Source: Haloflavibacter putidus (GTDB lineage Bacteria; Bacteroidota; Bacteroidia; Flavobacteriales; Flavobacteriaceae). Taken from it: a stretch of DNA of 64,000 nt. The DNA is taken from NCBI RefSeq assembly GCF_006546625.1, contig NZ_VIAR01000002.1, positions 248,001 through 312,000 on the forward strand, in the 5' to 3' direction. Below, piece by piece: positions 998-58,537 of this stretch. The translations under genes and the position numbers were made by a program. The notes under the pieces are model-generated. The model ran no database searches and was not told where the DNA came from. It saw only the letters and a list, made by a program, of their open reading frames with translations. Within the stretch, counting starts at the first letter, position 1. Each line of letters starts with the position of its first letter.

Positions 998-2062
998 ATG
1001 GCAGGCAACTCTTTTGGCAAACTTTTTAAACTAACTACTTTTGGCGAATCGCACGGCAAAGCCATTGGTGGTATTTTAGATGGTTGTCCGGCAAATTTAG
1101 AGCTAGATTTAGAAGCTATTCAAAAAGATCTAGATCGTAGAAAACCGGGTCAATCTGCTATTGTTACGCAACGTAAAGAGAGCGATATTGTAGATTTTCT
1201 TTCCGGAATATTTCAAAACAAAACTACCGGAACACCAATTGGATTCCAAATTGTAAATAAAGACTATAAATCCCGCGACTATGAACATATAAAAGATGTT
1301 TACCGGCCAAGTCACGCAGATTTTACCTACGATAAAAAATACAAACACAGAGATTATCGTGGCGGCGGTCGTGCAAGCGCACGAGAGACAGCTTGTAGGG
1401 TAGTAGCGGGCGCTATTGCAAAACAAGTAATTAGCAAGGTAAAAATTCAAGCTTTTGTGAGTGCTGTGGGAGAAATAGAATTAAAAAAAGACTTTACGGA
1501 AATAGATTTATTTGAAACAGAAAACAATCCTGTGCGTTGTCCAGATAAAAAAACTGCCGAAAAAATGGAAACTTACCTGAGAAAAATCCGTAAAGAAGGC
1601 GATACCGTTGGGGGCGTGGTAACTTGCGTTATAGAAAATGTACCTATAGGTTTGGGCGAACCTGTTTTTGATAAATTACACGCAGATTTAGCAAAAGCAA
1701 TGCTTTCTATAAATGCGGTAAAAGGTTTTGAGTACGGAAGCGGTTTTGAAGGTGCTAAAATGCGCGGGAGCAATCATAACGATAGTTTTAATACAGATAG
1801 CAGCACCAAAACCAATTATTCCGGTGGCATACAAGGTGGTATTTCTAACGGGATGCCAATTTATTTTAAAGTAGCGTTTAAACCTGTAGCAACCTTAATG
1901 CAGAAACAGCAAACTATAAATAGTAAAAACCAAGTGGTAGAAATGCAAGGTAAAGGCAGACACGACCCTTGTGTAGTGCCACGCGCTGTACCAATAGTAG
2001 AGGCAATGGCTGCAATGGTTTTAACCGATTTTTATTTACAACAAAAAGCAATAACTTTATAA
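998..2062 (+). CDS. aroC: Chorismate synthase
   Basis: AroC converts 5-enolpyruvylshikimate-3-phosphate to chorismate, the last step of the shikimate pathway, using reduced FMN. All three family signatures are visible: GESHG at residues 16-20 with the conserved His19, [19 protein letters not shown] at about 121-139, and [18 protein letters not shown] at about 320-337. Its length of 354 residues is normal for the family. It is first in a tight plus-strand run with a symporter (17 bp gap) and an EEP-family gene (11 bp gap). A 10-mer CTTTACGGAA copy lies inside it at 1492-1501. Confidence 0.97.
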
Positions 2063-2079
2063 ACGAATAGTTTTTTTAT

Positions 2080-3393
2080 ATGAAAAAATTAGCATTGCAT
2101 TGGCAAATTTTATTGGGGATGGCCGCCGGGGTTGTTTTCGCTTTAATATTGACCAATTTTTCTTGGGGACCAGATTTTATTGAAGATTGGATAAAACCTT
2201 TTGGAACCATCTTTATAAACGCTTTAAAACTTATTGCGGTACCGTTAATTTTAGCATCGCTAATAAAAGGAATATCAGATTTAAAAGACATTTCTCAAAT
2301 TTCTAAAATGGGAATTAGAACCATTGGCATCTATATACTTACCACTGTAATAGCTGTGAGTATTGGTTTATTGATGGTAAACGGAATTAAACCCGGGAAG
2401 ACCATAAATCCCGATACACGCACAGAGCTAGTAGAAAATTACGGTGGCGATGCAGAATTAACCAGACAAAATGCACAAAAACAGAAAGAGGCCGGTCCCT
2501 TGCAGGCTTTGGTAGATTTAGTGCCCGAAAATATTATTGGCGCAGCCGGAAAAAATTCTAATATGCTGCAAGTAATATTCTTTTCTATTTTCTTTGGAAT
2601 TGGACTTATTTTAATACCTGAAAAAACTGCCAAACCCGTAAAAGATTTTTTTGATGGCTTTAACGAAGTTATTTTAAAAATGATAGACATTATTATGCTT
2701 ACCGCTCCTTACGGCGTTTTTGCATTGTTGGCGGCTTTGGTGGTAGAAGCTCCAAGCGCCGATCTTTTTGCAGCTTTAGGAATGTATGCGTTAACCGTTG
2801 TAATTGGTTTAGCTCTAATGATTGTAATTTATACTTTACTAGTTTGGATTTTTACCAAACGTAAACCAAGTTTCTTTATAAACGGTATATCGCCAGCGCA
2901 ATTACTTGCTTTTTCTACAAGTTCTAGTGCGGCAACTTTACCGGTAACAATGGAGCGCGTAGAAGAACATTTGGGAGTAGAAGAAGAAGTAGCCAGTTTT
3001 GTCTTACCTATTGGCGCTACCATAAATATGGATGGAACCAGCTTATACCAAGCAGTTGCCGCCGTTTTTATTGCCCAAGCATTTGGAATAGATTTAAGCA
3101 TTGGGGCGCAATTAGGCATTATTGCTACTGCAACTTTAGCATCTATTGGTTCTGCCGCGGTACCCGGCGCAGGAATGGTAATGTTAGTTATCGTGTTGGC
3201 TCAAGCCGGAATTCCGGAAGCCGGTTTGGCACTTATTTTTGCGGTAGACAGACCTTTAGATATGTGTAGAACTACTGTAAATGTTACCGGAGATGCAGCA
3301 GTGTCTATGATGGTAGGAAAATCTGTAGGAAAACTTAGAGATAAACCCATTATCAAAAATTGGGACGATAATTATCCTAAAAATAAAAGTTAA
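2080..3393 (+). CDS. Dicarboxylate/amino acid:cation symporter (DAACS family)
   Basis: This 437-residue inner-membrane protein belongs to the GltP/DctA family, which takes up glutamate, aspartate or C4-dicarboxylates with Na+ or H+. Diagnostic segments are present: the serine-rich re-entrant hairpin STSSSAATLP at about 281-290, NMDGTS at about 316-321 and DRPLDMCRTTVNVTGD at about 389-404. In this family the NMDGT motif and the last helix bind substrate and cation. The N-terminus is strongly hydrophobic with about eight membrane segments overall. Substrate (glutamate versus dicarboxylate) cannot be settled from the sequence. It follows aroC by 17 bp and is probably co-transcribed. Confidence 0.93.
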   Translation: MKKLALHWQILLGMAAGVVFALILTNFSWGPDFIEDWIKPFGTIFINALKLIAVPLILASLIKGISDLKDISQISKMGIRTIGIYILTTVIAVSIGLLMVNGIKPGKTINPDTRTELVENYGGDAELTRQNAQKQKEAGPLQALVDLVPENIIGAAGKNSNMLQVIFFSIFFGIGLILIPEKTAKPVKDFFDGFNEVILKMIDIIMLTAPYGVFALLAALVVEAPSADLFAALGMYALTVVIGLALMIVIYTLLVWIFTKRKPSFFINGISPAQLLAFSTSSSAATLPVTMERVEEHLGVEEEVASFVLPIGATINMDGTSLYQAVAAVFIAQAFGIDLSIGAQLGIIATATLASIGSAAVPGAGMVMLVIVLAQAGIPEAGLALIFAVDRPLDMCRTTVNVTGDAAVSMMVGKSVGKLRDKPIIKNWDDNYPKNKS

Positions 3394-3404
3394 AAACAGT
3401 CTCT

Positions 3405-4484
3405 ATGCAAACCCTAGAAATTATCGTCTTAGTTTATGCGGCAATAATGCTCATACCAACTTTGGCTTCTATAACAAGAATAGACCAGTGGTGGATTCGT
3501 GGATTTGATTTTCCTAGAATACAAATTTCGGTACTGATTTTAGTGGGTTTGTTGGGGTGTTTATTTTTTTTAGACTTTGATAAATACCTGCATTTCTTTG
3601 CAGCCGGATTATTAATCTACAGTTTAGGATATCAATTTTATTATATTTACCCGTATACTTATTTGGCTAAAACAGAGGTGTTTAAATACAATCCGCAAAG
3701 CGAAAAGCGTAATATTTCTGTTTTGGTAAGCAATGTGCTAACTCCAAATAAAAAATATAATAAGCTTATAAATTTGGTGCAAGAAAGAAAACCAGATATT
3801 CTTTTAACCTTAGAAACCGATAAAACCTGGGAAAAAGAATTAGAAGTATTAGAAAAAGATTACCCTTATACCGTAAAGATACCGCAAGATAACCTTTACG
3901 GAATGCATCTGTACTCAAAATTAGAATTGAAAAATATTGAAGTAAAATATTTGGTGCAGAAAGATATTCCTTCTATTCACGGCGAAGTTATTTTAGATGA
4001 CGATCAAAACACGGCAATAAAAATTCATTGTTTGCACCCAAGACCGCCAAGTCCAACAGAAAGTGATACCTCTACTGCTCGCGATGCAGAACTGCTTTTG
4101 GTTGGCGAAAGTTTAAAAGAGGTTCACGATAAAACCTTGGTTTTTGGAGATTTAAACGATGTAGCTTGGTCACGAACTACAAAATTATTTCACGAGATAA
4201 GCGGTTTTTTAGATCCGCGAATTGGCAGAGGTTTTTATAACACTTTTCATGCTGATTATCCTTTGCTTAGATGGCCGTTAGACCACGTTTTTCATTCGCA
4301 CGATTTTACTTTAATAGAGATAAAAAGAGAAAAATCTGTCGGGTCAGATCATTTTCCTATGTATTTTAATCTGAATTTAGAACCAAAAGCTAAAGTAGTG
4401 CAAGAAGAGCCGGAGCCCGATAAAGAAGAAGAAAACTGGGCAAAAGAAAAAATAAAAGACGGCCAACCCCGACAAATGGTTTAA
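3405..4484 (+). CDS. Membrane-anchored endonuclease/exonuclease/phosphatase family protein
   Basis: The 359-residue protein has three N-terminal membrane segments (about residues 4-20, 38-56 and 62-80) followed by an EEP-fold catalytic domain. Visible EEP motifs are a conserved Glu in LLTLETDKTW, the GDLNDV metal/catalytic motif near residue 246 and the terminal SDHFP motif near 313. The C-terminus is a charged tail. The family cleaves phosphodiesters in nucleic acids, phosphoinositides or sphingolipids; the membrane anchor places the active domain at the membrane, probably outside the cytoplasm, but the substrate is unknown. It ends 4 bp into the convergent DCC gene. One CTTTACGGAA copy is at 3894-3903. 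Confidence 0.88.
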   Translation: MQTLEIIVLVYAAIMLIPTLASITRIDQWWIRGFDFPRIQISVLILVGLLGCLFFLDFDKYLHFFAAGLLIYSLGYQFYYIYPYTYLAKTEVFKYNPQSEKRNISVLVSNVLTPNKKYNKLINLVQERKPDILLTLETDKTWEKELEVLEKDYPYTVKIPQDNLYGMHLYSKLELKNIEVKYLVQKDIPSIHGEVILDDDQNTAIKIHCLHPRPPSPTESDTSTARDAELLLVGESLKEVHDKTLVFGDLNDVAWSRTTKLFHEISGFLDPRIGRGFYNTFHADYPLLRWPLDHVFHSHDFTLIEIKREKSVGSDHFPMYFNLNLEPKAKVVQEEPEPDKEEENWAKEKIKDGQPRQMV

Positions 4485-8858: not shown

Positions 8859-10906
8859 TACGTATTCTTTTCTTTTAAATACTCGTATATTTTATATTGT
8901 GATCTTATTCTAGAAGCAGAATTATCTACTACATAGTCGTTGGTTTCTGCTTCGTCTTGTATTCTTGCTTTTACATTATCTGCAAGCTGAATATTTAATA
9001 TGTCTTTTATTTCTTCCGCTACAGCGTTATCATAAATTGGCGTTAAAACCTCTATGCGCCGGTCTAGGTTACGCGTCATCCAATCTGCGCTTCCTATATA
9101 TAAATATTCGTCGCCATCGTTATTAAATAAATAAATACGACCATGTTCTAGATAGCGATCTAAAATACTGGTCATATAAATATTTTCGCTCAGCCCTTTT
9201 TTACCCGGAATTAGACAAGTAAAACCTCTTACCAACAATCTAATTTTAACTCCTTTTTGACTAGCCCGATACAAAAGATCTATGATTTCTGTATCTTCTA
9301 AACTGTTCATTTTGGCAGTAATTTGCGCTTTTTTACCTTGTTTAGCCAAATCGATTTCATTTAAAATCATTTTGGTAAATTCTTGGCGCGTATTAAAAGG
9401 AGAGACCAATAAATTTTTGGTTCGCGGAATTATTAATTCTCCTTCCAAAACTTTAAAAACCCGGTCTAATTCTTTACTGATTTTTTTGTGCGCGGTAAAC
9501 AAAGCGTGATCGGCGTAAATTTCACTGGTTTTACTGTTAAAATTTCCGGTGCCAATATAAGCATAACCCACTTTTTGATCTTCCTCAATACGATGCACCA
9601 ATAAAATCTTGCTGTGTACTTTTATTTTAGGATAACTATAAATTACCCTTGCGCCTTTTTCTTCGAATTTTTTACCCCATTCTATATTGTTTTCTTCATC
9701 AAAACGGGCTTTTGCTTCTATAAAAACCGTAAGATCTTTGCCGTTATCTAAAGCTCTCAATAATAAGGTAGTTAGTTTAGATTCGTCTGCAACGCGGTAA
9801 AGGCTTATTTTAATTTCTACTACTTGCGAGTCGTTGACGGCTTGTTCTAAAAATTTTTCTAAATAAGAAAAAGACTGGTAAGGATAATGTACCAATTGGT
9901 CTTGCTCGTAAATAGTTTTAAAAAGATTGCTAGAGTTTTCTAAATTTTTCTGCGGAAGCGGCGGCAGTTCCTTAAAAAATAATTCTGGTTTACTTTTGGG
10001 TTCTGGCAGCTCAAAAAAATCGCTTAGATTATGATATTTACCGCCCGGCATCATATCTATTTTACCCAAGCCCAGGTGTTTTCTTATTTTTTTCTGTAAA
10101 TCTTTGGGCATTTCTGCATCATATAATAAACGCGTAGGTTGGCCGTCTGTACGTTGTTTTAAGGAAGCATAAATTTTTTCGGCCAAGACACCGTTGTATT
10201 GATCGTCTATATACAATTCTGCGTCTCGAGACATTTTTACTTCGTAAATACCGCTTATTTTAAACTTAGGAAATACCTGCTGCATTTGTACGCGCAAAAT
10301 CTCGTCTATAAAAGTAATTTCTAAGTTTTTACCGGCATTAGAAAATTGGTAGAAACGTCCTACTTCTTCTACAGGAATATTTACCAAACCTGCCTTATCG
10401 GAATTAGAAAAGCTTACAAAAAAATAAATAGTGTTGTTTTCTAAGAAAGCTTTTTTTTCTTCCGTAAAGTCGATGATTTGAGGCGCTAAATGCGATTTTA
10501 TTTTTGATTTAAAAAAATCTTCGGCTTGTTCTAATTGCCTTTTTTTAAAATCTTCTTGCTCTAGTAAATAAATATTGTTTTCTGCCAGTTCCGGCAAAAT
10601 TTGATCATATAAAATATGGCCAAATTCTTTTTGGTGTTCTTTTACCCTGGCAATAATTTCTTTTACTTTTCTAGAGGGTTTTAAAGCCAATTTTTTTCGA
10701 AGGCTCTTTTTTATTTTTTTAATTTGTCGCAGCTGTGATACCCGAACGCGGTAATATTCGTCTAAGTTTGAAGAAAATATAGCCAAAAATCGTAAACGTT
10801 CGTAAAGCGGATTTCTTTTATCTGCAGCTTCCTGCAAAACCCGTTTATTAAAACTTAGCCAATTAAGATCGCGGTGCTTTACCCTAGTCTCAATAGGTTC
10901 ATCCAT
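8858..10906 (-). CDS. ppk1: Polyphosphate kinase 1
   Basis: Ppk1 reversibly transfers the gamma-phosphate of ATP to long-chain polyphosphate. The 682-residue length fits the family. The two histidines needed for the phosphoenzyme are in place: His431 in KVHSKILLV and His588 in YLEHGRIYLF, followed by the conserved SADWMTRNLDRRIEV block. The N-terminal helical domain begins LNWLSFNKRVLQEA, as is usual. One TTCCGTAAAG copy lies inside it at 10460-10469. The downstream substrate-binding-like gene overlaps its stop codon. Confidence 0.96.
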   Translation of the reverse strand: MDEPIETRVKHRDLNWLSFNKRVLQEAADKRNPLYERLRFLAIFSSNLDEYYRVRVSQLRQIKKIKKSLRKKLALKPSRKVKEIIARVKEHQKEFGHILYDQILPELAENNIYLLEQEDFKKRQLEQAEDFFKSKIKSHLAPQIIDFTEEKKAFLENNTIYFFVSFSNSDKAGLVNIPVEEVGRFYQFSNAGKNLEITFIDEILRVQMQQVFPKFKISGIYEVKMSRDAELYIDDQYNGVLAEKIYASLKQRTDGQPTRLLYDAEMPKDLQKKIRKHLGLGKIDMMPGGKYHNLSDFFELPEPKSKPELFFKELPPLPQKNLENSSNLFKTIYEQDQLVHYPYQSFSYLEKFLEQAVNDSQVVEIKISLYRVADESKLTTLLLRALDNGKDLTVFIEAKARFDEENNIEWGKKFEEKGARVIYSYPKIKVHSKILLVHRIEEDQKVGYAYIGTGNFNSKTSEIYADHALFTAHKKISKELDRVFKVLEGELIIPRTKNLLVSPFNTRQEFTKMILNEIDLAKQGKKAQITAKMNSLEDTEIIDLLYRASQKGVKIRLLVRGFTCLIPGKKGLSENIYMTSILDRYLEHGRIYLFNNDGDEYLYIGSADWMTRNLDRRIEVLTPIYDNAVAEEIKDILNIQLADNVKARIQDEAETNDYVVDNSASRIRSQYKIYEYLKEKNT

Positions 10907-14276: not shown

Positions 14277-16277
14277 ATGAATATTACTGAAGCAACCCTG
14301 ATTAATTATACCAACACCAAATTATCTGCACAACGTCTTAAAAAACTCTATTTTCAGATGCTTAAACCACGTCTTATCGAAGAGAAAATGCTTATTTTAC
14401 TTCGGCAAGGAAGAATCTCTAAATGGTTTAGCGGCATAGGACAAGAAGCTATTTCTGTAGGCGTAACTGCTTGTTTACAAGAAGATGAATATGTTTTGCC
14501 CATGCACAGAAACTTAGGGGTTTTTACTACCAGAAACATTCCGCTGCAGCGGCTTTTCTCGCAATGGCAAGGCAAAGCCAATGGTTTTACCAAAGGGCGC
14601 GACCGTAGTTTCCATTTTGGTACGCAAGAATTTAAAGTAATTGGTATGATCTCTCATCTTGGTCCGCAAATGGGCGTGGCAGATGGTATTGCATTGGCGC
14701 ATAAACTGCGTAAAGAGAAAAAACTAACCGCTGTTTTTACCGGAGAAGGTGGCACAAGCGAAGGCGATTTTCACGAAGCTTTAAACATTGCTTCGGTTTG
14801 GCAATTACCTGTTTTGTTTTGTATAGAGAATAATGGTTATGGCCTATCAACACCTACTCACGAACAATATTTCTGTAAAGATTTGGCAGATAGAGGAAAA
14901 GGTTATGGAATGGAAGCGCATATTATAGACGGCAATAATATTATAGAAGTAGTAGAGCAGGTAGAAAAAATTGCACAAAGCGTTAGAGAGAATCCGCGTC
15001 CGGTATTAATAGAATTTAAAACGTTTAGAATGCGCGGCCACGAAGAAGCCAGCGGAACAAAATATGTACCAAATCAATTATTAGATGATTGGGCAAAAAA
15101 AGACCCGATAGATAATTTTAAAAACTTTTTAATTGCTGAAGGTATTCTTACCGAAACAGAAGATGAAACAGAAAGAAAACAGATAAAGAAAGAAATTAAC
15201 TCTAATTTAAAAATTGCCAACGAAGAACCCGCAATTAAATCTTCCGTAAAGGAAGAATTACAAGATGTTTACAAAGCCCACGAGCCCGAAATTTTAGAAC
15301 CTGGTAGCGAAACGGAAAACATTCGGTTTGTAGATGCAATTTCAGAAGGTTTATACCAAGCTATGGAAAAGCATGAAAATTTGGTATTAATGGGACAAGA
15401 TATTGCAGAATATGGTGGAGTTTTTAAAATAACCGATGGTTTTGCAGAGCGTTTTGGCGTGGACCGCGTGAGAAATACACCTATTTGTGAGTCTGCTGTA
15501 ATTTCTGCAGCAATGGGACTTTCTATAAATAAAATGAAAGCCGTGGTAGAAATGCAATTTGGTGATTTTGTTTCTTCCGGGTTTAACCCAATTGTAAATT
15601 ATTTGGCAAAAGTGCATTACCGTTGGAACCAAAATGCAGATGTTGTAGTAAGAATGCCTTGTGGCGCAGGTGTTGGGGCAGGACCGTTTCATAGCCAAAC
15701 AAACGAAGCTTGGTTTACCAAAACCCCGGGTTTGAAAGTGCTATATCCGGCATTTCCTGCAGATGCTAAAGGCTTATTAACCGCCGCAATAGAAGACCCA
15801 AACCCCGTAATGTTTTTTGAACATAAAGCCCTTTACAGAAGCGTTCGGCAAGAGGTTGCAAAAAATTATTATAATTTACCTTTAGGGAAAGCAGCCAAGT
15901 TAGAAGAAGGTAACAATATAAGTATTATAACCTATGGTGCCGGCGTGCATTGGGCCTTAGATATTGCAAAAGAATTACCGGATATAGAACTCGATATTAT
16001 AGATTTAAGAAGTTTGCAGCCGCTAGATAAAGAAAGCATTTTCGCTTCCGTAAGGAAAACAGGAAAAGTGCTTATTTTACAAGAAGATTCTATGTTTGGT
16101 GGTTTGGCGGCAGAAATTTCGGCATTAATTGCACAAGAATGTTTTGAGTATTTAGATGCGCCAATAAAAAGAGTTGCAAGCATAGAAACCCCAATTCCAT
16201 TTGCCGCTAATTTGGAAGAAAAGTATCTGGCTAAGAATAAATTGCAAGAAAGCTTAGAAGAATTAATGGCTTTTTAA
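14277..16277 (+). CDS. Fused 2-oxoacid dehydrogenase E1 alpha/beta (branched-chain type)
   Basis: One 666-residue chain carries both E1 subunits. The alpha half (about 1-320) has the thiamine diphosphate motif GEGGTSEGDFHEALN near residue 157, ending with NNGYG near 185. The beta half (about 345-666) has RFVDAISEGLYQAMEKHENL, GQDIAEYGGVFKIT and EDPNPVMFFEHKALYR. Most bacteria encode the halves separately; fused forms are common in Bacteroidota. E1 decarboxylates branched-chain 2-oxoacids, or pyruvate, and passes the acyl group to a lipoyl E2. No E2 or E3 gene is in the window, so substrate is assigned by family resemblance only. A TTCCGTAAAG copy is at 15242-15251. Confidence 0.92.
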   Translation: MNITEATLINYTNTKLSAQRLKKLYFQMLKPRLIEEKMLILLRQGRISKWFSGIGQEAISVGVTACLQEDEYVLPMHRNLGVFTTRNIPLQRLFSQWQGKANGFTKGRDRSFHFGTQEFKVIGMISHLGPQMGVADGIALAHKLRKEKKLTAVFTGEGGTSEGDFHEALNIASVWQLPVLFCIENNGYGLSTPTHEQYFCKDLADRGKGYGMEAHIIDGNNIIEVVEQVEKIAQSVRENPRPVLIEFKTFRMRGHEEASGTKYVPNQLLDDWAKKDPIDNFKNFLIAEGILTETEDETERKQIKKEINSNLKIANEEPAIKSSVKEELQDVYKAHEPEILEPGSETENIRFVDAISEGLYQAMEKHENLVLMGQDIAEYGGVFKITDGFAERFGVDRVRNTPICESAVISAAMGLSINKMKAVVEMQFGDFVSSGFNPIVNYLAKVHYRWNQNADVVVRMPCGAGVGAGPFHSQTNEAWFTKTPGLKVLYPAFPADAKGLLTAAIEDPNPVMFFEHKALYRSVRQEVAKNYYNLPLGKAAKLEEGNNISIITYGAGVHWALDIAKELPDIELDIIDLRSLQPLDKESIFASVRKTGKVLILQEDSMFGGLAAEISALIAQECFEYLDAPIKRVASIETPIPFAANLEEKYLAKNKLQESLEELMAF

Positions 16278-24019: not shown

Positions 24020-24050
24020 GCAATTATCTATTTTTTAAAAGCTTTACGGA

Positions 24051-34358: not shown

Positions 34359-34468
34359 ACTTAAAATGCAATCTGTTTTTGTACTTTACGGAATTTAAAG
34401 CGTTTAGTATAACTATAAAAACATGTTAAACATCTGCGAAAGCCTAATCTTTTTATCGGTTGTATTTC

Positions 34469-41623: not shown

Positions 41624-42247
41624 ATGGGAAAGAAAAACAACAAACCTAATAAAAAACCACGGTGGAAACTTCTTCACCAATACTACTCGTACACAGGGTT
41701 TTATTCTTTTGTGGGAAAAAGTTTGCTTAAAGCTGCTATTCCCATCGCAATTTTTGTAGCCGCTCTTATTGGGGTACATTTCTTTGTGATGGATATCAAC
41801 ACCATGTTAACCTATATAACAGATAATTTCCCTGCTATTGGGGTTTTTGCTGTTTTCTTTGCATCCGAATCTATTCTAGGTTTAATACCACCAGAAATAT
41901 TTATTGCTTGGTCCGGCAAGTCTGCTTCGCCAAAATTGTTTTTAGCTATTTTGGCTTTTCTATCGTACTTTGGCGGGATTATCTCCTATTTTATTGGTCG
42001 TGGTATTGCTGCTATTCCTGCTGTTTTTGTATATCTGGAAGTAAAAATGGCCAAGCATATAAAAAATATGCGAAAATGGGGTGGCTTCCTAATTGTAGTA
42101 GGAGCGCTTTTACCGGTTCCTTTTGCGGTATCTAGTATTGCAGCAGGAATTATCAAGTTCTCGTTTAGAAGTTATCTGCTTTTTGGTTTACTACGTTTTC
42201 TACGCTTTTTACTTTACGGAATAGCAATTTTTGGAGCGTTGAATTAA
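41624..42247 (+). CDS. VTT-domain (DedA-like) membrane protein
   Basis: The 207-residue inner-membrane protein has a basic N-terminus and the SNARE-associated/VTT core: FFASESILGLIPPEIFIAWS near residue 80, a re-entrant helix, and the conserved Gly-Phe-x-Val block MRKWGGFLIVVGALLPVPFA near 150-170 with the family Pro. DedA-type proteins help lipid carrier or phospholipid turnover across the membrane. The acidic and Arg residues expected in the motif are partly replaced, so it is a diverged member. A CTTTACGGAA copy is at 42212. Confidence 0.83.
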   Translation: MGKKNNKPNKKPRWKLLHQYYSYTGFYSFVGKSLLKAAIPIAIFVAALIGVHFFVMDINTMLTYITDNFPAIGVFAVFFASESILGLIPPEIFIAWSGKSASPKLFLAILAFLSYFGGIISYFIGRGIAAIPAVFVYLEVKMAKHIKNMRKWGGFLIVVGALLPVPFAVSSIAAGIIKFSFRSYLLFGLLRFLRFLLYGIAIFGALN

Positions 42248-42277: not shown

Positions 42278-44929
42278 TTATAAATTATAACCTATACTAA
42301 ATAATAAGATTCTTGGTAAAATATAGGTTTTGGAATCTGCGATAACATACGAAGTAAAGATGTTTTGGTTTTTAAACCGAGTATCAAATAAGTTTTGTGC
42401 TTCTATTTTGAAACTCCAAGCACTACTTTCTTTTTGATAAAACAACGAAGTGTTGGCAATCTCATAATTGTTTTTTTGACCTAAGGTTTTATTTTTATAA
42501 GTGTAAGAAGTAAAATCTGCCGAAAAGATAAACCCATCTAAAAAATCATAATCTAAATTGATATAAGGTTTGGTGGTCATAAACTTAGTTGTATTATCAC
42601 TAAGCTTAAAATTACCAAAACTTTGTTTCCAACCTATCTCTATAATTGGTAAATTGTCATAAATTGTTTTTGCCGAAAAACTATAACTAGTATTGATGTT
42701 TTTATTTTTAAATTGGTCATCATTACTAAATTGTAAATAGCTTGTATTATTATAGCGCAATCCGGTTTGAAAATCAATTTTTTTAACTTTTTTACTTGCT
42801 CTTGCGTTAATACCCCAATTTTCTGAAGAGTTATCAACAAATAATAATGATGCAACTTGGTTGATACCATCATAATTCACTTTATCTGCAATTCCTTTTA
42901 TTTGTTTTGAATAATTTGCAACAGCATAAATTCCAACACCGCGATATCCCTTTGATTTTGTATAGCGTAGTTTAAAATCGTGTTTTAGTGTATTTTCTAA
43001 ATTTGCACTTCCTTTAAAAATACTATTATAACGCTGTAGGTAAAATCTATTTGCAAATTGTGAAGCATTGGTAAAAGAAGATTTTAACTCGTAATCAAAT
43101 CGTAAGCTTTTACGGCGGTCAAATTCAGCTTTAGCCGTTAAATTTGGTAAAACAACTAATTTGTTTTCTTTCTCTGTCAATGTCTGGTTCGGGTTCCAAT
43201 GATAAAAATGTAAGAAAGCACCCTGATCAAAAGTAAAAATACCGGTTTTAAATTTATAAAATATTCCTGCAAAAGCATCATTTAATCTAAATTGAAAATC
43301 GTTATTAAAACCCACTCCCGCAAAATTATTTATACTTCCGTCTTCTAATTCTTGAACATCCTCTGTAATAAAACCTTGGTTAATATTAAAATTACCCAAA
43401 GTTGAGTAAATATGGTTATTTCTATTTATTATCCAATAATGTTTAAAAATAGCTTTAAACTGATTTTTTGTAGTCTCTTTAAATTGTTTTATGCTTATCG
43501 TGGGTTCATCTATAATTGGTATAAGACCAGATAAGAAATCATCATTGGTTTTCCATATATTTCTAGGCGTTAAATTATTATAAGTATAATCAACTACTGC
43601 AGAAAAAGAATGCTCTCTAGATTCTTTTCTATGCCATTCTACTGTTTGGTTAAAAAAAGTTTGCTTTCCACTACTATTATTTAAAAAAGAATTGGAAAGA
43701 CTATCAACTATAGAATTAATACTATTGTTATAATCATCATTTGCTCTTTTAAATTTAGACTTAAAATGCCACTGGTCTGTATAATTGGGTAGATACTTTC
43801 CATTTATACTTGCAATTGCTAGTGCATTCCTGGTATTTGTGGCTATCGTACTTTCTTCCGTAAAGGTATTGTATCTATTGATAGATTCTATAAGCGTACT
43901 TTCTTTGGTTTTTGAAAAAATACCGTAGCCCGTTATATCTAATTCTTTATTTACTTGTTGCGTAAAGTTAATTGCAGCAAATTTACGATCACTTTTGATA
44001 ACATCTTCTTTTTCTAAAAAGTCGGCAAAATCATCATAGCTGTTCTCAAAGTGGGTGTTACCTTTCTCAAATATTGAATTAATGCCTTTTTGAAAATTAT
44101 AATATTGCTCATAGGTAAATACACGGTCTCTTATATTATTTAAATTCCCAATTACATTTAAAGTAGTTTTTGGACTGTAATAAAATAAGTTGGTGTGTGC
44201 ATTGTAAAATTCGTTATTGCCCAAACCAGCTACAATATCACCAAAGACGAAGTCTTTTTTATCGTCTTGCAGTTTTATGTCCATTGCCATATCTTCACTT
44301 TCTTGAAAGTCTTTAAGCATTGCTATTTCGTTATAATTATCTAAAACGACTACTTGTTTTACCGCATCGGCAGGAATATTATCTACAGCTAATTTAGTAT
44401 CACCATCAAAAAACTTTTTGTTTTCTACCAGCATTGTTGTTACCTTTTTACCGTTAACTTTTATATCACCATCTTTACTTACTTCAACGCCAGGTAGCTT
44501 TTTTAATATGTCCTTAAGTTTTCGTTCTTCCCCACTAGTAATTTTATTAACATTATAAATAATTGTGTCTTTTTTAATAATCACTGGCATTTCTAATACT
44601 ACTTCGTCTAAACTTTCTGCTTTTTCCTGTAATATTATATTTTTGGTTTGGTCTGATTTTAAGTTAATTTCAAAGGTTTTTTTTGCATAACCCATATAAT
44701 TAACCGTAACGGTGTAAGGAATAGCTTTTAAAGCTAAATCATAATTGCCATTTTGATTGGTAATAGAGAATTTAACTTCTTGTAAAGTGTCTTTTGGATG
44801 GGCCAACAGATTTGCAGATGCAAGAGGTTTACCAAGACTATCTGTTACCTTACCGCTTAAAATTTTTTGCGAAAAAGATGTAAAACTTAAAAAAAGAAAA
44901 AATATGAAAATTAACTTACCCTCACGCAT
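42278..44929 (-). CDS. Outer-membrane beta-barrel protein, TonB-receptor-like
   Basis: The 883-residue protein has a signal peptide (to about 21, FTSFSQ), then a carboxypeptidase-like regulatory domain (about 23-105; LSGKVTDSLGKPLASANLLA, ITNQNGNYDLALKAIPYTVT), a plug-like domain near 120-220 (LKDILKKLPGVEVSKDGDIK, VNGKKVTTMLVENKKFF) and a long barrel. This is the outer-membrane beta-barrel family that lacks a clear TonB box. It follows a GLPGLI gene by 8 bp, a pairing seen repeatedly in Bacteroidota. Substrate unknown. One TTCCGTAAAG copy is at 43856. Confidence 0.88.
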   Translation of the reverse strand: MREGKLIFIFFLFLSFTSFSQKILSGKVTDSLGKPLASANLLAHPKDTLQEVKFSITNQNGNYDLALKAIPYTVTVNYMGYAKKTFEINLKSDQTKNIILQEKAESLDEVVLEMPVIIKKDTIIYNVNKITSGEERKLKDILKKLPGVEVSKDGDIKVNGKKVTTMLVENKKFFDGDTKLAVDNIPADAVKQVVVLDNYNEIAMLKDFQESEDMAMDIKLQDDKKDFVFGDIVAGLGNNEFYNAHTNLFYYSPKTTLNVIGNLNNIRDRVFTYEQYYNFQKGINSIFEKGNTHFENSYDDFADFLEKEDVIKSDRKFAAINFTQQVNKELDITGYGIFSKTKESTLIESINRYNTFTEESTIATNTRNALAIASINGKYLPNYTDQWHFKSKFKRANDDYNNSINSIVDSLSNSFLNNSSGKQTFFNQTVEWHRKESREHSFSAVVDYTYNNLTPRNIWKTNDDFLSGLIPIIDEPTISIKQFKETTKNQFKAIFKHYWIINRNNHIYSTLGNFNINQGFITEDVQELEDGSINNFAGVGFNNDFQFRLNDAFAGIFYKFKTGIFTFDQGAFLHFYHWNPNQTLTEKENKLVVLPNLTAKAEFDRRKSLRFDYELKSSFTNASQFANRFYLQRYNSIFKGSANLENTLKHDFKLRYTKSKGYRGVGIYAVANYSKQIKGIADKVNYDGINQVASLLFVDNSSENWGINARASKKVKKIDFQTGLRYNNTSYLQFSNDDQFKNKNINTSYSFSAKTIYDNLPIIEIGWKQSFGNFKLSDNTTKFMTTKPYINLDYDFLDGFIFSADFTSYTYKNKTLGQKNNYEIANTSLFYQKESSAWSFKIEAQNLFDTRFKNQNIFTSYVIADSKTYILPRILLFSIGYNL

Positions 44930-48093: not shown

Positions 48094-48405
48094 TCGGTTT
48101 TTTTAAAAAAAAGGTGTTTTTGCAGAAACTAGTGTAAGGTTTCTCAAAAACACTTTTTTATTTGTAGTATTTAAACTTCTTTATAATATTATTTAACACT
48201 ATTTTTCTTTACGGAATTAATTTACCATCTCAGTAAAATTCCGCCGAAAGGCTTCTTATAGTTATCGCTACGCAGAAGATTCAAATATAAACAGCCAAAG
48301 TTTTTAAAAACGTAAAACACACATCAAAAGCGTAAAAGCGTTTTAATTTTGTTAAATAGTTACGAAGCCTATAAGTAATTTTTATTTTTACAAAAAAATA
48401 AAAAC
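48094..48405. other. Intergenic region with hairpin and one CTTTACGGAA copy
   Basis: There is no gene here. The left part holds the terminator hairpin. A CTTTACGGAA copy at 48207-48216 is followed by a degenerate inverted version (AATTCCG then AAAG, about 48237-48250). Confidence 0.6.
48107..48159 (+). terminator. Terminator after acidic protein gene
   Basis: About 15 bp pair between 48107-48122 and 48145-48159 across a 22-base loop, with A and T runs on the two flanks. Confidence 0.65.
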
Positions 48406-50507: not shown

Positions 50508-50569
50508 AATTTTTTATTTTAAGATATGCTTATTTTCTTTACGGAAGTTACTCTTCTTATAAAGAAAAT

Positions 50570-50992: not shown

Positions 50993-51858
50993 AATAAGGT
51001 TTTTGGTAATTTTAAATCTAAGTTTAAAGCTTCGTTTAATTTTTCCGTAAAGTAAGCGCTAAGCAAAGGAGATTCTTTTTCGACATTTTGGTGTACGAAA
51101 AAATATAAGTTTTTAAGACCTTCTTTTTCCCATTTTTTTATGCGCTCTATCCAATCGTCTAAACGCGAATAATCTGTTGGGTGGTTGGCACCATTATAAC
51201 GAATAAAAGCCGTTGGGGTAGTTAGCCGCATATGCAACAAATCTCGACGCCCGGCGCTATCTGTTATTATACTAGCAATATTATATTCTTGTAAAATATT
51301 GTTGAGCCGGTTACTTATTTCTTGATCTGTGTGCCAATCTGTATGGCGTAATTCTATGGCTAACGGAATTTGTTTTGGCCAGGCTTCAAAAAACAACGGT
51401 AAGCGGTCTATATGTTTTGGGTTGAAGTTTTCTGGCATTTGTAAAAAAACCATTCCTAATTTTTCCCTTAACGGAAGTAAATTAGCGGTAAAATCTGTTA
51501 CAAGATCGTCTGCATTTACCAAGCGTTTGGTATGACTTATTAAACGCGGTACTTTGGGGAAGAATTTAAAACCCTCTGCTGCTTTTTCGTACCAATTAAT
51601 AAATTGCTCTTCCGGAAACATTCGGTAAAAAGAAGCGTTGAGCTCTATGCTGTTAAATTGTGTGGAATAATAACTCAACTCGTCTCTGGTACCACGCGGA
51701 TAGAAATTTTTTAAATCTTTTCTGTTCCATTTTGCACAACCCACATAAACTTCTTGTAAGCCTTCTTTATGTTGCTCAAAAACCTGCTTGGTTTGCTGGT
51801 GATCTTTAGGTAGGTTAAAGTCTACATCTTCGGGGTTTTCTACTTTTCCAAATTTCAT
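50989..51858 (-). CDS. DUF72 protein (YecE family)
   Basis: The 289-residue TIM-barrel-like protein has family motifs: VYVGCAKWNRKDLKNFYPRG, FNSIELNASFYRMFPEEQF, LGMVFLQMPENF and IPLAIELRHTDW. The function is unknown, although some relatives occur with DNA repair genes. It starts 2 bp after PgpH and overlaps NUDIX by 4 bp, so all three share a transcript. One TTCCGTAAAG copy is at 51043. Confidence 0.92.
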   Translation of the reverse strand: MKFGKVENPEDVDFNLPKDHQQTKQVFEQHKEGLQEVYVGCAKWNRKDLKNFYPRGTRDELSYYSTQFNSIELNASFYRMFPEEQFINWYEKAAEGFKFFPKVPRLISHTKRLVNADDLVTDFTANLLPLREKLGMVFLQMPENFNPKHIDRLPLFFEAWPKQIPLAIELRHTDWHTDQEISNRLNNILQEYNIASIITDSAGRRDLLHMRLTTPTAFIRYNGANHPTDYSRLDDWIERIKKWEKEGLKNLYFFVHQNVEKESPLLSAYFTEKLNEALNLDLKLPKTLL

Positions 51859-51860: not shown

Positions 51861-53918
51861 TTACTCGGGATATTCAATTCGTAAATGGTAAATATTCTTC
51901 AACTTTCGTTTTAAAACCTTTTTAATTACTTGTATTTCCTTAAAGGTAATATCGGCGTTTAAAAATTGCCCCTCCTCCATTTGTTTGTTGATTATTTTTT
52001 CTACAAACTCGTCTATAATTTGGGCATTGGGTTCTTTTAAACTTTTGCTGGCCGCCTCTACACTATCGCTCATCATTAAAATAGCGGTTTCCTGACTAAA
52101 GGGTTCGGGACCGGGATATTGAAACCTACTTTTGTCTACTTCTTTTCCGGTTTCTTCTGCTATTTCTTGTTGTTTTTTATAAAAATAATAAACAATACTG
52201 GTTCCATGATGGGTTCTAATAAAATCTATAATCCTGTCGGGAAGATTGTTCTTTTTGGCTATTTCTATTCCGTGAATAACGTGGTTGATAATAATTTCTG
52301 CGCTTTCTCGCGGTTCTAATTCGTCATGCGGATTTACAGAAGTGGTTTGATTTTCCGTAAAGTAAGTAGGATTAGACATTTTGCCAATATCGTGGTACAA
52401 AGCTCCAACCCTTACCAACATAGCATTTGCACCAATTTCGTTGGCGGCGGCTTCGGCAAGATTGGCTACGTTTAAACTATGGTGAAAAGTACCCGGAGCC
52501 GTATTGGATAACTCTTTTAGCAATTTATTATTAGTGTCTGAAAGTTCTAAAAGTGACATATCTGAAACCAAACCAAAAACTTTTTCATAGGCGTAGATAA
52601 GCGGTTGCACGAATAACAAAGCCACACCACCTAGTAGAAACATTATAAAGGTTTCGTAGTTAATATCATTCATATTACCTTCTTGAATAATGGTAAAAGA
52701 GAAATAGGCAAAAATGTAAACAGCCGTTATTTGTCCTACAGAAATAAATAAATTAGCACGTTTGTAAAGTTCAGAAATCGTTAAGATAGTAACAATACCG
52801 GCTATGATTTGCAAAAACATATATTCGTAACTATTAGGCACAATAAAACCTAAGATAAGTACTGTAATGACGTGCGTAAATAAGCCTAAACGTGAGTCAA
52901 AAAAAGCTTTTAAGGTTAGCGGTAAAATACATAATGGTACTACATATACATAACTTACATTTAGGCGCATAACCGCGGTGGTGAGTAAAACCGCTAATAA
53001 AACATTAAAAAACACAAAAGTAACTTTGGTATTATTATCAAATATAAGCGGACGGTATTGTTTGATAAACAAAAACAACATTAGCAAGGCTAAGGAAACC
53101 AGTAAAACATAACCAACTACCACTACATAATAGCTGTTAGCCGTCCATACTTTAGACTCGTATTCAGATTTAAGAGATTTTAAAATACTCAGTTTATTGC
53201 CTTCTACAACTTCTCCTTTTGCTATTATTTTGGTACCCTGACTAACGCTGCCGCGCGTATAGGAAATTGCATCTAATTTAGATTGTAAATCTTTTTGCGT
53301 TAGGGCTTCATTAAGTTTTACATTGGGTTCTATAATCTCAAAAAACAATTCTTTTATAGAACGCTCAAAATCTTTTAACTTAGCTTCTTCTACTCTATTT
53401 TCTATAAAGTCTCCTAACTCGTCTTGTTTTATAATGTTCTTGTAAACTACTTCTTCTACCTCGTTTCCCTTTTTAAGGTAAACATAACGGTCTTCGTCAA
53501 ACGGATTGATCTCTAACAGAACGCCGTTCTTATAAATATCTTCTAACATAATATCTATAAAACCGATAATTGCCTTATTGTTTTTTTGTAAAATACTGTC
53601 GTTAAAAACCGCACGAATTTGAGAAGATAAACCCTTTTCTATACTTTGCGGAATACTTTTATTATAATTATAATAAGGCGTATGGCTTTTTCTTATTTCG
53701 CTCTTTTCTTCCTCTATTTCTTCTTTAGATTTTAGAATGGCAAAATCAAAAGGCGCATAAAGATTTTCATACTGCCAGGGTTTTCCTTTAGAAATATCGT
53801 ACTTAAATTTACTTCCTTTAGGAAACATATAAACAATAACCACCGTGGTTAAAATATATAACAACACTTTGTATATAAGTGCTTGGTTTTTGTAAATCTC
53901 GTTGATAAACTTATTCAT
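51861..53918 (-). CDS. pgpH: 7TM-HD phosphodiesterase, PgpH type
   Basis: The 685-residue membrane protein has one N-terminal helix (about 17-34), an extracytoplasmic domain (about 40-265), seven further helices (about 270-450) and a C-terminal HD domain with LYHDIGKMSNPTYF near residue 509 (His-Asp) and FIRTHHGTSIVYYFY. This is the PgpH/7TMR-HD layout; PgpH hydrolyses cyclic di-AMP in Listeria and relatives. Specificity here is inferred from architecture. It leads a three-gene operon. One TTCCGTAAAG copy is at 52353. Confidence 0.92.
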   Translation of the reverse strand: MNKFINEIYKNQALIYKVLLYILTTVVIVYMFPKGSKFKYDISKGKPWQYENLYAPFDFAILKSKEEIEEEKSEIRKSHTPYYNYNKSIPQSIEKGLSSQIRAVFNDSILQKNNKAIIGFIDIMLEDIYKNGVLLEINPFDEDRYVYLKKGNEVEEVVYKNIIKQDELGDFIENRVEEAKLKDFERSIKELFFEIIEPNVKLNEALTQKDLQSKLDAISYTRGSVSQGTKIIAKGEVVEGNKLSILKSLKSEYESKVWTANSYYVVVVGYVLLVSLALLMLFLFIKQYRPLIFDNNTKVTFVFFNVLLAVLLTTAVMRLNVSYVYVVPLCILPLTLKAFFDSRLGLFTHVITVLILGFIVPNSYEYMFLQIIAGIVTILTISELYKRANLFISVGQITAVYIFAYFSFTIIQEGNMNDINYETFIMFLLGGVALLFVQPLIYAYEKVFGLVSDMSLLELSDTNNKLLKELSNTAPGTFHHSLNVANLAEAAANEIGANAMLVRVGALYHDIGKMSNPTYFTENQTTSVNPHDELEPRESAEIIINHVIHGIEIAKKNNLPDRIIDFIRTHHGTSIVYYFYKKQQEIAEETGKEVDKSRFQYPGPEPFSQETAILMMSDSVEAASKSLKEPNAQIIDEFVEKIINKQMEEGQFLNADITFKEIQVIKKVLKRKLKNIYHLRIEYPE

Positions 53919-56250: not shown

Positions 56251-56262
56251 AAGAATTGCAAC

Positions 56263-56439
56263 CTATTTCTTCGCTTTTAGTTTATTCCGTAAAGAAATAA
56301 TACATAAAATACCACCAAGTAAAACCGCAGAGTAAGCTTTATAATTATTCTCTACACTAAAGTTGTCAAAGTCTAAATAGGTAATACCAAAGGCTAAGAA
56401 CAAGATGCCAAAAAAAGCTATAGGCTTATCGCTTTTCAT
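56263..56439 (-). CDS. Small two-pass membrane protein (58 aa)
   Basis: ATG at 56437-56439 opens a 58-codon frame with two hydrophobic segments: IAFFGILFLAFGITYL (about 7-22) and YSAVLLGGILCIISL (about 36-50), then a basic tail RNKLKAKK. No family is recognised. One TTCCGTAAAG copy (56285-56294) falls inside it, read in the sense direction. It lies 24 bp downstream of the PH-domain gene and could be co-transcribed. Confidence 0.6.
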   Translation of the reverse strand: MKSDKPIAFFGILFLAFGITYLDFDNFSVENNYKAYSAVLLGGILCIISLRNKLKAKK

Positions 56440-56463: not shown

Positions 56464-56844
56464 TTAATTTAATATTTTATCGGCTAGGAATTTTTGCACC
56501 GCGTAAACATCTATGCTTTTATTAAATTTCTTACTCACAGAAGGATTAGCTTCGCTGGAAACCCAAATTTTCAATTCTGCATCCAAATCAAATGTGCCGG
56601 CGGTTTCTAAAGAAAACCTAGAAATGCTTTTATAAGGCAAACTTTTATATTCTTGCTTACTGCCGGTAAAACCTTGTACGTCTATTAAAATTAATCGTTT
56701 ATCCGTAAAGATAAACGTGTCGCGTAAAAGTTTAAAACCTACTTCAATAACTTCTCCGCTAACTAAAAGCTTTGCATATTTTTCAGTTAGTTTTTCGGAA
56801 GAAACTTCTCCTGCATTGCCCATTAATTTATTGAGTATTCCCAT
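56464..56844 (-). CDS. Bacterial PH-domain protein (bPH_1)
   Basis: From the ATG at 56844 this is a 126-residue single PH-like domain: EKYAKLLVSGEVIEVGFKLL, DTFIFTDKRLILIDVQGFTG and SLPYKSISRFSLETAGTFDL match the bPH_1 family (Bacillus YvlC/YdjB-like proteins). No membrane segment is present. The function of bacterial PH domains is unknown; a lipid or protein-binding role is inferred. I chose the shorter start because it places the MGILNKLMG N-terminus usual in the family. Confidence 0.85.
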   Translation of the reverse strand: MGILNKLMGNAGEVSSEKLTEKYAKLLVSGEVIEVGFKLLRDTFIFTDKRLILIDVQGFTGSKQEYKSLPYKSISRFSLETAGTFDLDAELKIWVSSEANPSVSKKFNKSIDVYAVQKFLADKILN

Positions 56845-57633: not shown

Positions 57634-57900
57634 ATGAAAAACGAACATGAGCGATACAACCTAGCCAATCAAAGAAAATTGGTTGGTGTTTTGCAAATTC
57701 TGGGTGCCCTAGGTGTTATAATAAGTTTCTTTTTTAGTCAACCTCTACTCTGTCTTTCCAGCGCCGGTCTCGAACTTTTAATGCTGGCAGGTTTTGTGGT
57801 GCGCTTAAAAATTAAAGACAGTTTTTTACAATCTTTACCATCCTTTTTTTATGCAGTGCTTAGTTTCTATGTTTGTTATGCCGCTTTAATCGATCTTTAG
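57634..57900 (+). CDS. Small membrane protein, three helices (88 aa)
   Basis: From the ATG at 57634 (MKNEHERYNLANQRKLVGVL) the protein has three hydrophobic segments (about residues 15-35, 38-55 and 65-85) separated by short polar loops. I recognise no family with confidence; the topology is loosely DoxX-like. I chose this start because an upstream in-frame start would add a hydrophobic segment overlapping the antisense frame. Confidence 0.6.
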   Translation: MKNEHERYNLANQRKLVGVLQILGALGVIISFFFSQPLLCLSSAGLELLMLAGFVVRLKIKDSFLQSLPSFFYAVLSFYVCYAALIDL

Positions 57901-58039
57901 TTAGATTTAATTGTCTATGTCTTAATAATTATATTGTTTTATAAGGTGTAAGATACTTTCACGATAAATTATAAGCAAGATGATTAGTATACTTTTTAAG
58001 CAAGCTTCGGAATATTTAAGCATTACCTAAAATATAAAA

Positions 58040-58403
58040 TTAGCCTACAATCTGTGGTAAAAATGCTATAGCTGCGCACATTATCAAGAATAGAAAAGCA
58101 GGAAAAGATTTATATAGCGGATCGCTTATTTTAATATGCATCGCAATAGATCCAAGCAGTAAAATTCCCAATCCAATAGCTGAAGGCATTACTAAAGCCG
58201 GAACCCAAATACCAATTATGAGCCCTATTGCCAACACACATTTTAGAAAGCCCACTAAATAGCACATCCATACCGGAAGTCCATAGACTTTAAATTCTTC
58301 AATAATAGTATCAGCGTTTCCTCCGCGCCATTTGGTTGGTTTTTTTTCTGAATTAACCAAAAAGCGCTACAATTACCTGCAAGCCAATAATTAAAATATC
58401 CAT
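58040..58403 (-). pseudogene. DoxX-like membrane protein, frameshifted near the start
   Basis: The main frame (58040 to about 58360) carries a DoxX-like four-helix region: PTKWRGGNADTIIEEFKVYG, then WMCYLVGFLKCVLAIGLIIG, AIGLGILLLGSIAMHIKISD. The family start helix is missing in this frame but is encoded just upstream in another frame from the ATG at 58401-58403 (MDILIIGLQVIVALFG), which stops at once. The two frames meet at a CTTTTTGG run near 58362. One extra or lost base would restore a normal gene. Confidence 0.65.
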
Positions 58404-58537
58404 ATCAATTTTGTTTAAGTTTTAATAAATTTAATCAAACAAAATAAGATTAGGTTTAATTTTATGTTAATTATAAAATCCTAATTAGTGGAATGTACAT
58501 TCCGTAAAGAATGGCGAACTGTGCAACCAATTGAATA

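What the first reader, a model, noticed from the sequence alone, without database searches (positions are those of the whole stretch)
1492..58509. CTTTACGGAA is hugely over-represented: a candidate DNA uptake-type or other genome-wide recognition word
By hand I find 22 exact copies of the 10-mer (12 as CTTTACGGAA, 10 as its complement), plus 9/10 matches at 1587, 19926 and 56702. At about 35% GC, base composition predicts roughly 0.1-0.2 copies for both strands of 64 kb. Copies lie in unrelated genes (aroC, ppk1, PBP, MscS neighbourhood, PgpH) and in gaps, with no shared flanks, so it is not a transposon relic. In coding copies the sense strand almost always reads CTTTACGGAA (Phe-Thr-Glu or Leu-Tyr-Gly frames), while the two DNA strands are used equally. 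Lack of strand skew argues against Chi- or KOPS-type polar words and fits uptake signals like those of Haemophilus or Neisseria. I know of no such word described in Flavobacteriaceae.
Basis: partly seen in the sequence, partly recalled or inferred. Interest (0 to 1): 0.85.

Follow-up and report, generated by a model that had tools for sequence, protein, structure and literature searches.

The report
DNA-uptake-type word in Mesonia genomes
A bacterium of the marine genus Mesonia carries one ten-letter DNA word hundreds of times across its genome, in a pattern that fits the 'self' tags by which some bacteria choose which free DNA to take up; such tags are otherwise known from bacteria that pull DNA in with pili, which this one seems to lack.

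Summary
CTTTACGGAA occurs 22 times in the window (0.25 expected) and 746 times in the 2.92-Mb genome (reversed control 8). The genus is Mesonia (inferred). The word peaks in 4 of 16 Mesonia species (746, 804, 263, 255), is weaker in a few relatives and near background elsewhere (at most 59 copies in 296 sampled family genomes outside the genus). A related lineage prefers a one-base dialect, CTTTACGGAT. Copies are maintained between two species at 90% identity (35 of 43; control words 321 of 697). Flanks are T-rich upstream, with two A-rich stretches downstream. The pilus ATPase family is not above cut-off in the word-rich species; ComEC, DprA, an HHH protein and an outer-membrane/DUF5689 pair like that needed for transformation in Riemerella anatipestifer are present. 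That pair's trees conflict with those of two other genes; the four word-rich species share one allele class, as do three word-poor ones. Best reading: a DNA uptake sequence. Uptake is untested.

The parts
1492..1501 (+). CTTTACGGAA
   Evidence: inside ORF 998-2062, sense, Phe-Thr-Glu frame
3894..3903 (+). CTTTACGGAA
   Evidence: ORF 3405-4484, sense
10460..10469 (-). CTTTACGGAA
   Evidence: ORF 8858-10906, sense
15242..15251 (-). CTTTACGGAA
   Evidence: ORF 14277-16277, antisense
21497..21506 (-). CTTTACGGAA
   Evidence: between called ORFs
21601..21610 (-). CTTTACGGAA
   Evidence: between called ORFs
21658..21667 (+). CTTTACGGAA
   Evidence: between called ORFs, 57 bp from an opposite copy
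24042..24051 (+). CTTTACGGAA
   Evidence: counted as intergenic; overlaps the first base of ORF 24051-24572
24922..24931 (+). CTTTACGGAA
   Evidence: between called ORFs
29085..29094 (+). CTTTACGGAA
   Evidence: ORF 28793-29623, sense
29635..29644 (+). CTTTACGGAA
   Evidence: between called ORFs
34384..34393 (+). CTTTACGGAA
   Evidence: between called ORFs
34905..34914 (+). CTTTACGGAA
   Evidence: ORF 34491-36800, sense
40147..40156 (-). CTTTACGGAA
   Evidence: between called ORFs
42212..42221 (+). CTTTACGGAA
   Evidence: ORF 41624-42247, sense
43856..43865 (-). CTTTACGGAA
   Evidence: ORF 42278-44929, sense
48207..48216 (+). CTTTACGGAA
   Evidence: between called ORFs
50537..50546 (+). CTTTACGGAA
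   Evidence: between called ORFs
51043..51052 (-). CTTTACGGAA
   Evidence: ORF 50989-51858, sense
52353..52362 (-). CTTTACGGAA
   Evidence: ORF 51861-53918, sense
56285..56294 (-). CTTTACGGAA
   Evidence: between called ORFs
58500..58509 (-). CTTTACGGAA
   Evidence: between called ORFs; in a stretch without G014 alignment
1586..1595 (-). variant CTTTACGGAT, the dialect form of G009/G011/G015
56701..56710 (-). variant CTTTACGGAT, the dialect form of G009/G011/G015

Best explanation
CTTTACGGA(A/T) is a DNA uptake sequence. A surface receptor of a naturally competent Mesonia binds double-stranded DNA at this word, helped by A/T-rich flanks, so DNA of its own kind is taken up preferentially and then recombined through ComEC, DprA and RecA. 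Repeated uptake and recombination of word-bearing fragments has built up and maintains hundreds of copies (molecular drive). The receptor is probably the outer-membrane protein with a CarboxypepD_reg domain together with the DUF5689-DUF5017 protein beside it (G000:C52:6780-10945), which match RA0C_RS04915/RS04920 of Riemerella anatipestifer in domains and order. Exchange of this cassette between species would shift the dialect or let the word decay. Shown here: the word, its flanks, maintenance, clade distribution, dialect, the genes named, the cassette's conflicting trees. Inferred: competence, uptake bias, the receptor's identity, the exchange itself.
For: Copy number 746, reversed control 8, both strands equal. 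Single-base variants are enriched too, by position. Flanks: T at -5 to -2 0.50 against 0.33 in control draws; A at +10 to +15 0.46 and at +22 to +28 0.43, with A low (0.28) between; 0 of 2000 control draws reach the T value, either A-rich value or the contrast; the downstream pattern holds in intergenic (42) and antisense (26) sites, so it is not codon-driven. Kept at 35 of 43 aligned sites against 321 of 697 control-word copies (Fisher p 5e-6) and 85 of 252 flanking 10-mers. 42 of 131 intergenic with 9.3% non-coding. Dialect CTTTACGGAT in G009/G011/G015: 169/154/162 against 70/70/69 of the A form; G000 97 against 746. ComEC, DprA, DUF5689 and HHH proteins in 16 of 16 Mesonia. Trees of the OM and DUF5689 proteins reject the species grouping that a nearby gene and ComEC support, and put the four word-rich species together, with G001 next.
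Against: No uptake or competence data for Mesonia were found (one paper listed, not opened). Known uptake-sequence systems use type IV pili; the pilus ATPase family is not above cut-off here (other pilus parts not searched). The competence genes do not separate word-rich from word-poor species: they are in all 16. The receptor link rests on few independent lineages: within the ComEC clade 2 word-rich against 3 word-poor, and G001, G004, G006 carry the same allele class with only 5, 9 and 17 copies. The branch holding exactly the four word-rich species is weak (68/55 and 52/46), and the tested groups were named after the quick trees had been seen. The second A-rich stretch is not seen in G002 or G008 (15 sites each). 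One of two word-free stretches examined is the ribosomal-protein region, not an island. Ori and ter were not located.
Confidence: 0.82

Rival explanations
1. A Chi-like recombination word or a KOPS-like segregation word, read by a translocating enzyme along one strand.
For: Such words are also over-represented and lineage-specific (recalled); regional strand imbalances occur (C22 first 140 kb 14 plus to 26 minus, next 100 kb 20 to 9).
Against: On the 304 kb of contig C22 that was read the totals are 46 plus and 45 minus. Coding sense bias (63 of 89) can produce regional imbalance. Patterned flanks on both sides are not expected of a word read from one strand (inference). Ori and ter were not located, so polarity is not excluded.
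Confidence: 0.07
2. A binding site for a nucleoid-associated or DNA-methylation/repair protein (HIP1-like genome word), unrelated to uptake.
For: A-rich stretches about one helical turn apart would also suit an architectural DNA-binding protein; spacing looks random rather than clustered (gap CV 0.97 and 0.98 on the two longest stretches, 0.74 and 0.61 on the others).
Against: The word is not a palindrome, unlike HIP1 (recalled). It is frequent in one clade only, with a one-base dialect inside it, while general chromosome proteins are expected to be shared across the genus (inference).
Confidence: 0.08
3. A regulatory or terminator element multiplied in gaps, or a relic of a mobile element.
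For: 3.4-fold intergenic enrichment; three opposite-strand pairs lie within 60 bp.
Against: 89 of 131 copies lie inside called ORFs in five frame-and-strand combinations; of 16 aligned sites where only one of two species has the word, 12 differ by one or two substitutions and one is a gap.
Confidence: 0.02
4. Over-represented through codon or peptide preference.
For: Sense bias 63 to 26.
Against: 32% of copies are non-coding; three sense and two antisense frames are used; the missing antisense frame would contain an in-frame TAA stop.
Confidence: 0.01

Closest known systems
USS of Haemophilus influenzae and Pasteurellaceae
   Same: Short core at high copy, flanked by AT-tracts predicted rigid and slightly bent (PMC7811141, passages); one orientation favoured in reading frames (PMC2346458, abstract and passages).
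   Different: Different core, different phylum, fewer copies (746 against 1,465 core copies in H. influenzae), pilus ATPase family not above cut-off here. Layouts were compared from passages, not base by base.
DUS and its dialects in Neisseriaceae
   Same: 10-mer at high copy; dialects differing by single bases between related species, thought to mirror the receptor ComP (PMC3630211, passages).
   Different: Dialects there follow the core-genome phylogeny; the receptor is a type IV pilin (recalled). Here the candidate cassette conflicts with the trees of two other genes and no pilus ATPase was found.
Transformation system of Riemerella anatipestifer and R. columbina
   Same: Same domain pair (CarboxypepD_reg outer-membrane protein beside DUF5689-DUF5017 protein), ComEC, DprA, HHH protein; no pilus homologues; R. 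columbina prefers its own DNA (PMC8459023 abstract, passages, section 20; PMC7965970 passages, section 16).
   Different: No uptake word is established there: the k-mer table lists only A/T-rich words. Homology was judged from domains and gene order, not from the Riemerella sequences; ComF and DUF1343 were not searched in Mesonia.
HIP1 in cyanobacteria (recalled)
   Same: Genome-wide short word of high frequency.
   Different: HIP1 is a palindrome; this word is not.

Membership tests
DNA uptake sequence (DUS/USS) | Hundreds or more copies of one short word far above Markov expectation | tested here: met
   746 copies, reversed control 8; 131 against 2.8 in 464 kb
DNA uptake sequence (DUS/USS) | Non-palindromic, both strands, in genes and gaps, gaps enriched | tested here: met
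   376/370; 42 of 131 intergenic, 9.3% non-coding
DNA uptake sequence (DUS/USS) | Near-matching variants also enriched | tested here: met
DNA uptake sequence (DUS/USS) | AT-rich flanking tracts (USS type) | tested here: met
   in G000; similar in G014 at partly shared sites; second stretch not seen in G002/G008, 15 sites each
DNA uptake sequence (DUS/USS) | Dialects between related species | tested here: met
   CTTTACGGAT in G009, G011, G015
DNA uptake sequence (DUS/USS) | Competence genes present | tested here: met
   ComEC, DprA, HHH, OM-DUF5689 pair; in all 16 Mesonia, word-rich or not
DNA uptake sequence (DUS/USS) | Type IV pilus machinery (shared by the known cases; not part of the definition of the word) | tested here: not met
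   PF00437 above cut-off in 4 of 16 genomes, none of the four word-rich ones; other pilus parts not searched
DNA uptake sequence (DUS/USS) | Word raises uptake or transformation | not testable with these tools
   needs an uptake assay
Chi/KOPS-type polar word | Strand bias along replichores | tested here: inconclusive
   46 plus, 45 minus on 304 kb of one contig; ori and ter not located
HIP1-type word | Palindromic octamer (recalled) | tested here: not met
   the word is not its own reverse complement
Riemerella-type transformation machinery | Adjacent CarboxypepD_reg outer-membrane protein and DUF5689-DUF5017 protein | tested here: met
   L180:6780-9569 and 9599-10945; PF13620 and PF18942+PF16409 above cut-off, TonB plug domain just under cut-off; a homologous pair in all 16 genomes
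Riemerella-type transformation machinery | ComF and DUF1343 proteins | not tested
   not searched

The most novel reading that the evidence does not exclude
The outer-membrane/DUF5689 cassette is a pilus-independent, sequence-specific DNA receptor, a new way of reading a DNA uptake sequence. It moves between Mesonia species as a swappable 'language gene' next to an unmoved nuclease gene, and each swap redirects genetic exchange by changing which word is read. Other Flavobacteriia would then have their own undiscovered words.
Probability: 0.4. Interest if true: 0.92.

Novelty: new variant of a known kind. Interest (0 to 1): 0.82.

Why it matters
Uptake sequences are described in Pasteurellaceae and Neisseriaceae (PMC1939737 and PMC7811141, starts of abstracts); both use pili (Haemophilus: passage; Neisseria: recalled). 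An uptake-type word with a dialect in Bacteroidota would be a third origin and would suggest that self-recognition of DNA does not need a pilus. It makes an open question testable: why Riemerella columbina prefers its own DNA although no word was established. It also gives a concrete receptor candidate and a practical tag for transforming Flavobacteriia.

Tried and rejected
CCCATTGCGG, the other extreme window 10-mer, belongs to a 42-bp tandem repeat at 59360-59915 and is not a genome word. Word deserts as horizontally acquired islands: two 35-kb gaps, picked from the 100 places listed (contigs C1-C5), were read; one (C2) holds mixed hydrolases, a TonB-type receptor and a UvrA-like protein, the other (C4) the ribosomal-protein, SecY and RpoA region, so the test is not supportive (10 of 16 and 10 of 19 ORFs of at least 200 aa were scanned). 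Word density in shared against unshared DNA: 42 of 46 copies on the window and C1 lie in DNA aligned to G014 (129 of 164 kb), but the G014 stretches end inside the region, so this says little. Words in word-poor relatives: TTTTGCTGAA and CTARCGGAA are enriched in several species but weaker; not resolved. Inverted-pair terminators: only three opposite-strand pairs within 60 bp in 464 kb. Solved relatives: the DUF5689 set matches one entry, 8jiy_A, over its C-terminal part; no match for the outer-membrane set at E 0.001. Structure prediction was not requested, because its stated rule does not list stretches taken from whole genomes. Literature: searches found no paper; one (Riemerella columbina); one (not opened); one search listed 25 of 90 and 25 of 7,952, none on an uptake word in Bacteroidota by title. 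The word, its complement or its first eight letters are in 1,117 papers, of which 20 were listed; their titles look like incidental oligonucleotides; none was opened.
Full report
OBSERVATION. The word CTTTACGGAA occurs 22 times in the window, 12 plus and 10 minus, at the places given; 100 dinucleotide-preserving shuffles gave 0.25 on average and never more than 3. With one mismatch allowed there are 51 sites against 6.84 expected. In the whole genome G000 (2,923,547 bases, 53 contigs) there are 746 copies, 376 and 370 by strand, against 8 for the reversed pattern. In 464 kb of it (window plus 400 kb) there are 131 copies; an order-3 Markov model, itself fed by the word, expects 2.8, and the word ranks first among 10-mers under an order-4 model.

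WHERE IT LIVES. That the genus is marine is recalled. Exact counts in the 16 Mesonia genomes: G000 746, G014 804, G008 263, G002 255, G009 70, G011 70, G015 69, G010 27, G003 18, and 4 to 17 in the other seven. A family sample of 299 genomes holds 3 of the genus and 296 others; the highest of the others is 59. A ComEC tree puts the genomes with 18 or more copies in one nine-species clade (support 81/89); the EEP tree does not recover that clade and does not reject it (p 0.38).

ANATOMY. One-base variants show which positions bend: at 1, 4, 5, 6, 7 and 10 at least one change is clearly above expectation, at 2 weakly (C 4 against 0.6, G 3 against 0.8), at 3 and 9 hardly, and at 8 all three changes fall below expectation; CTTTACGGAT occurs 25 times against 1.3. 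Upstream positions -5 to -2 are T-rich (0.50), downstream +10 to +15 A-rich (0.46), then A-poor at +16 to +21 (0.28), then A-rich again at +22 to +28 (0.43). Of 2000 draws of 131 composition-matched 10-mers none reached the T value, either A-rich value or the contrast. Intergenic (42), sense (63) and antisense (26) sites show the downstream pattern; the upstream T excess is strong in intergenic (0.63) and antisense (0.62) sites and slight in sense sites (0.37). G014 (93 sites) shows the pattern, partly at the same sites; in G002 and G008, with 15 sites each, the second A-rich stretch is not seen. The layout resembles the core and AT-tracts of the H. influenzae USS (PMC7811141, passages).

GENE CONTEXT. 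42 of 131 copies lie between called ORFs although only 9.3% of the sequence does (binomial p 4e-13). Of 89 coding copies 63 are sense and 26 antisense; five of six frames are used, and the sixth would contain an in-frame TAA stop. A frame preference of one orientation is also reported for known uptake sequences (PMC2346458, abstract and passages). On 304 kb of contig C22 the strand split is 46 to 45.

MAINTENANCE. In 132.7 kb of aligned DNA between G000 and G014 (89.8% identity), 43 G000 copies were compared: 35 are intact in G014; 8 are G000-only and 8 G014-only. For 400 control 10-mers drawn from the G000 side, with four G/C including CG, 321 of 697 G000 copies are intact (Fisher p 5e-6). 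By context 15 of 21 intergenic and 20 of 22 genic words are intact, against 37 of 123 and 48 of 129 of the 10-mers beside them. Of the 16 unshared sites, 12 differ by one or two substitutions, three by more, and one is a gap. The word is therefore held by selection or continued conversion and turns over mainly by point change.

DIALECT. CTTTACGGAT counts are 169, 154 and 162 in G009, G011 and G015, against 70, 70 and 69 of the A form; in G000 97 against 746, G014 102 against 804, G008 61 against 263, G002 37 against 255, G010 29 against 27, G003 12 against 18. G000 and G009 alone differ with odds ratio 18.6. In 19 sampled sites of the T lineage (three close relatives, so not all independent) the next two bases are also T-rich. 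This parallels the DUS dialects of Neisseriaceae (PMC3630211, passages).

MACHINERY. The pilus/secretion ATPase family PF00437 scores above cut-off in 4 of 16 genomes (G006, G007, G012, G015) and in none of the four word-rich ones; all 16 have at least one match at E 0.001 or better, under the cut-off in the other twelve. ComEC, DprA, a DUF5689 protein and an HHH protein of about 300 residues occur in all 16. In R. anatipestifer, which lacks pilus homologues, transformation requires ComEC, DprA, ComF, RecA, an HHH protein, a DUF1343 protein and two proteins with neighbouring locus numbers: a carboxypeptidase-regulatory-domain outer-membrane protein (RS04915) and a DUF5689/DUF5017 protein (RS04920) (PMC8459023, abstract and passages). 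G000 has that domain pair side by side at C52:6780-10945, and a homologous pair was found in all 16 genomes, next in order to an EEP-family nuclease gene. ComF and DUF1343 were not searched.

RECEPTOR ALLELES. The EEP gene agrees with the ComEC tree in two groups: G002, G008 and G010 (96/93), joined by G009/G011/G015 (100/98); it rejects a grouping of the four word-rich species (p 6e-5). The outer-membrane and DUF5689 trees do the opposite: they reject the three ComEC groupings tested (p from 0.004 down to 3e-72) and place G000, G014, G002 and G008 together with G001 (91/94 and 94/98). The groups were named after quick trees had been seen, so these p values are optimistic. Within the nine-species clade, all four word-rich species carry one allele class and all five others the other class. 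This fits a receptor whose exchange changes the word in use. It is not proof: only two against three lineages are independent, and G001, G004 and G006 carry the first class without the word. The four-species branch itself is weak (68/55 and 52/46). Old alleles kept side by side, or exchange of surface proteins under phage pressure, could produce the same trees.

EXPLANATION. The most likely mechanism is sequence-biased DNA uptake: the word and its flanks are bound at the cell surface, DNA enters through the Riemerella-type system and recombines, and the bias accumulates words (probability 0.82). That the outer-membrane/DUF5689 pair reads the word I put at about 0.4. Competence, uptake bias and binding are inferred. 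Against the reading: no pilus ATPase above cut-off, no experimental data, competence genes equally present in word-poor species, and one of two word-free stretches is the ribosomal-protein region. Rivals (Chi/KOPS, genome-organisation word, regulatory element, codon preference) each leave features unexplained, as listed.

LITERATURE. The R. columbina paper shows preference for its own DNA over R. anatipestifer and E. coli DNA at equal amounts and lists the commonest k-mers, which are nearly pure A/T, judged against base composition only (PMC7965970, passages and section 16). The searches listed no uptake word for Bacteroidota; for only 25 titles each were seen. Most subscription papers and bioRxiv preprints are outside that library.

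CHECK.

Noticed in passing
window 59360-59915: A 42-bp direct repeat (11 exact copies of CCCATTGCGG) inside ORF 58603-62463, minus strand, 1286 aa.
   Followed up: no
Mesonia genomes G001, G003, G005, G006, G007, G012, G013: Another word, TTTTGCTGAA, is enriched (110-292 copies against 24-76 in the other nine; reversed control 10-19 in all 16), mostly where CTTTACGGAA is scarce; perhaps another lineage's word.
   Followed up: partly
Mesonia genomes G001, G004, G005, G007, G013 and others: CTARCGGAA, sharing the CGGAA end, is enriched (96-220 copies in these five against reversed controls of 14-69), clearest in G007 at 158 against 14; not enriched in G009, G011, G015.
   Followed up: partly
G000, G014, G002, G008 sampled stretches: Palindrome TTCCGCGGAA (10/1.4, 16/0.9, 8/0.2, 14/0.3 observed/expected, each site counted on both strands) and CCGCGAAAGC are over-represented, cause unknown.
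   Followed up: no
L190:10161-11537 (G007): The DUF5689 protein looks mosaic: N-terminal half like one allele class, a C-terminal stretch like the other (alignment, by eye).
   Followed up: no
L180:5597-6658: An Exo_endo_phos_3 family gene (PF19580) lies next to the outer-membrane/DUF5689 pair in G000, and its homologue is next in order in the other 15 Mesonia; possibly an entry nuclease.
   Followed up: partly
G006, G007, G012, G015: T2SSE/PilT-like ATPase genes (467-477 residue frames) in 4 of 16 Mesonia, not linked to the word.
   Followed up: no
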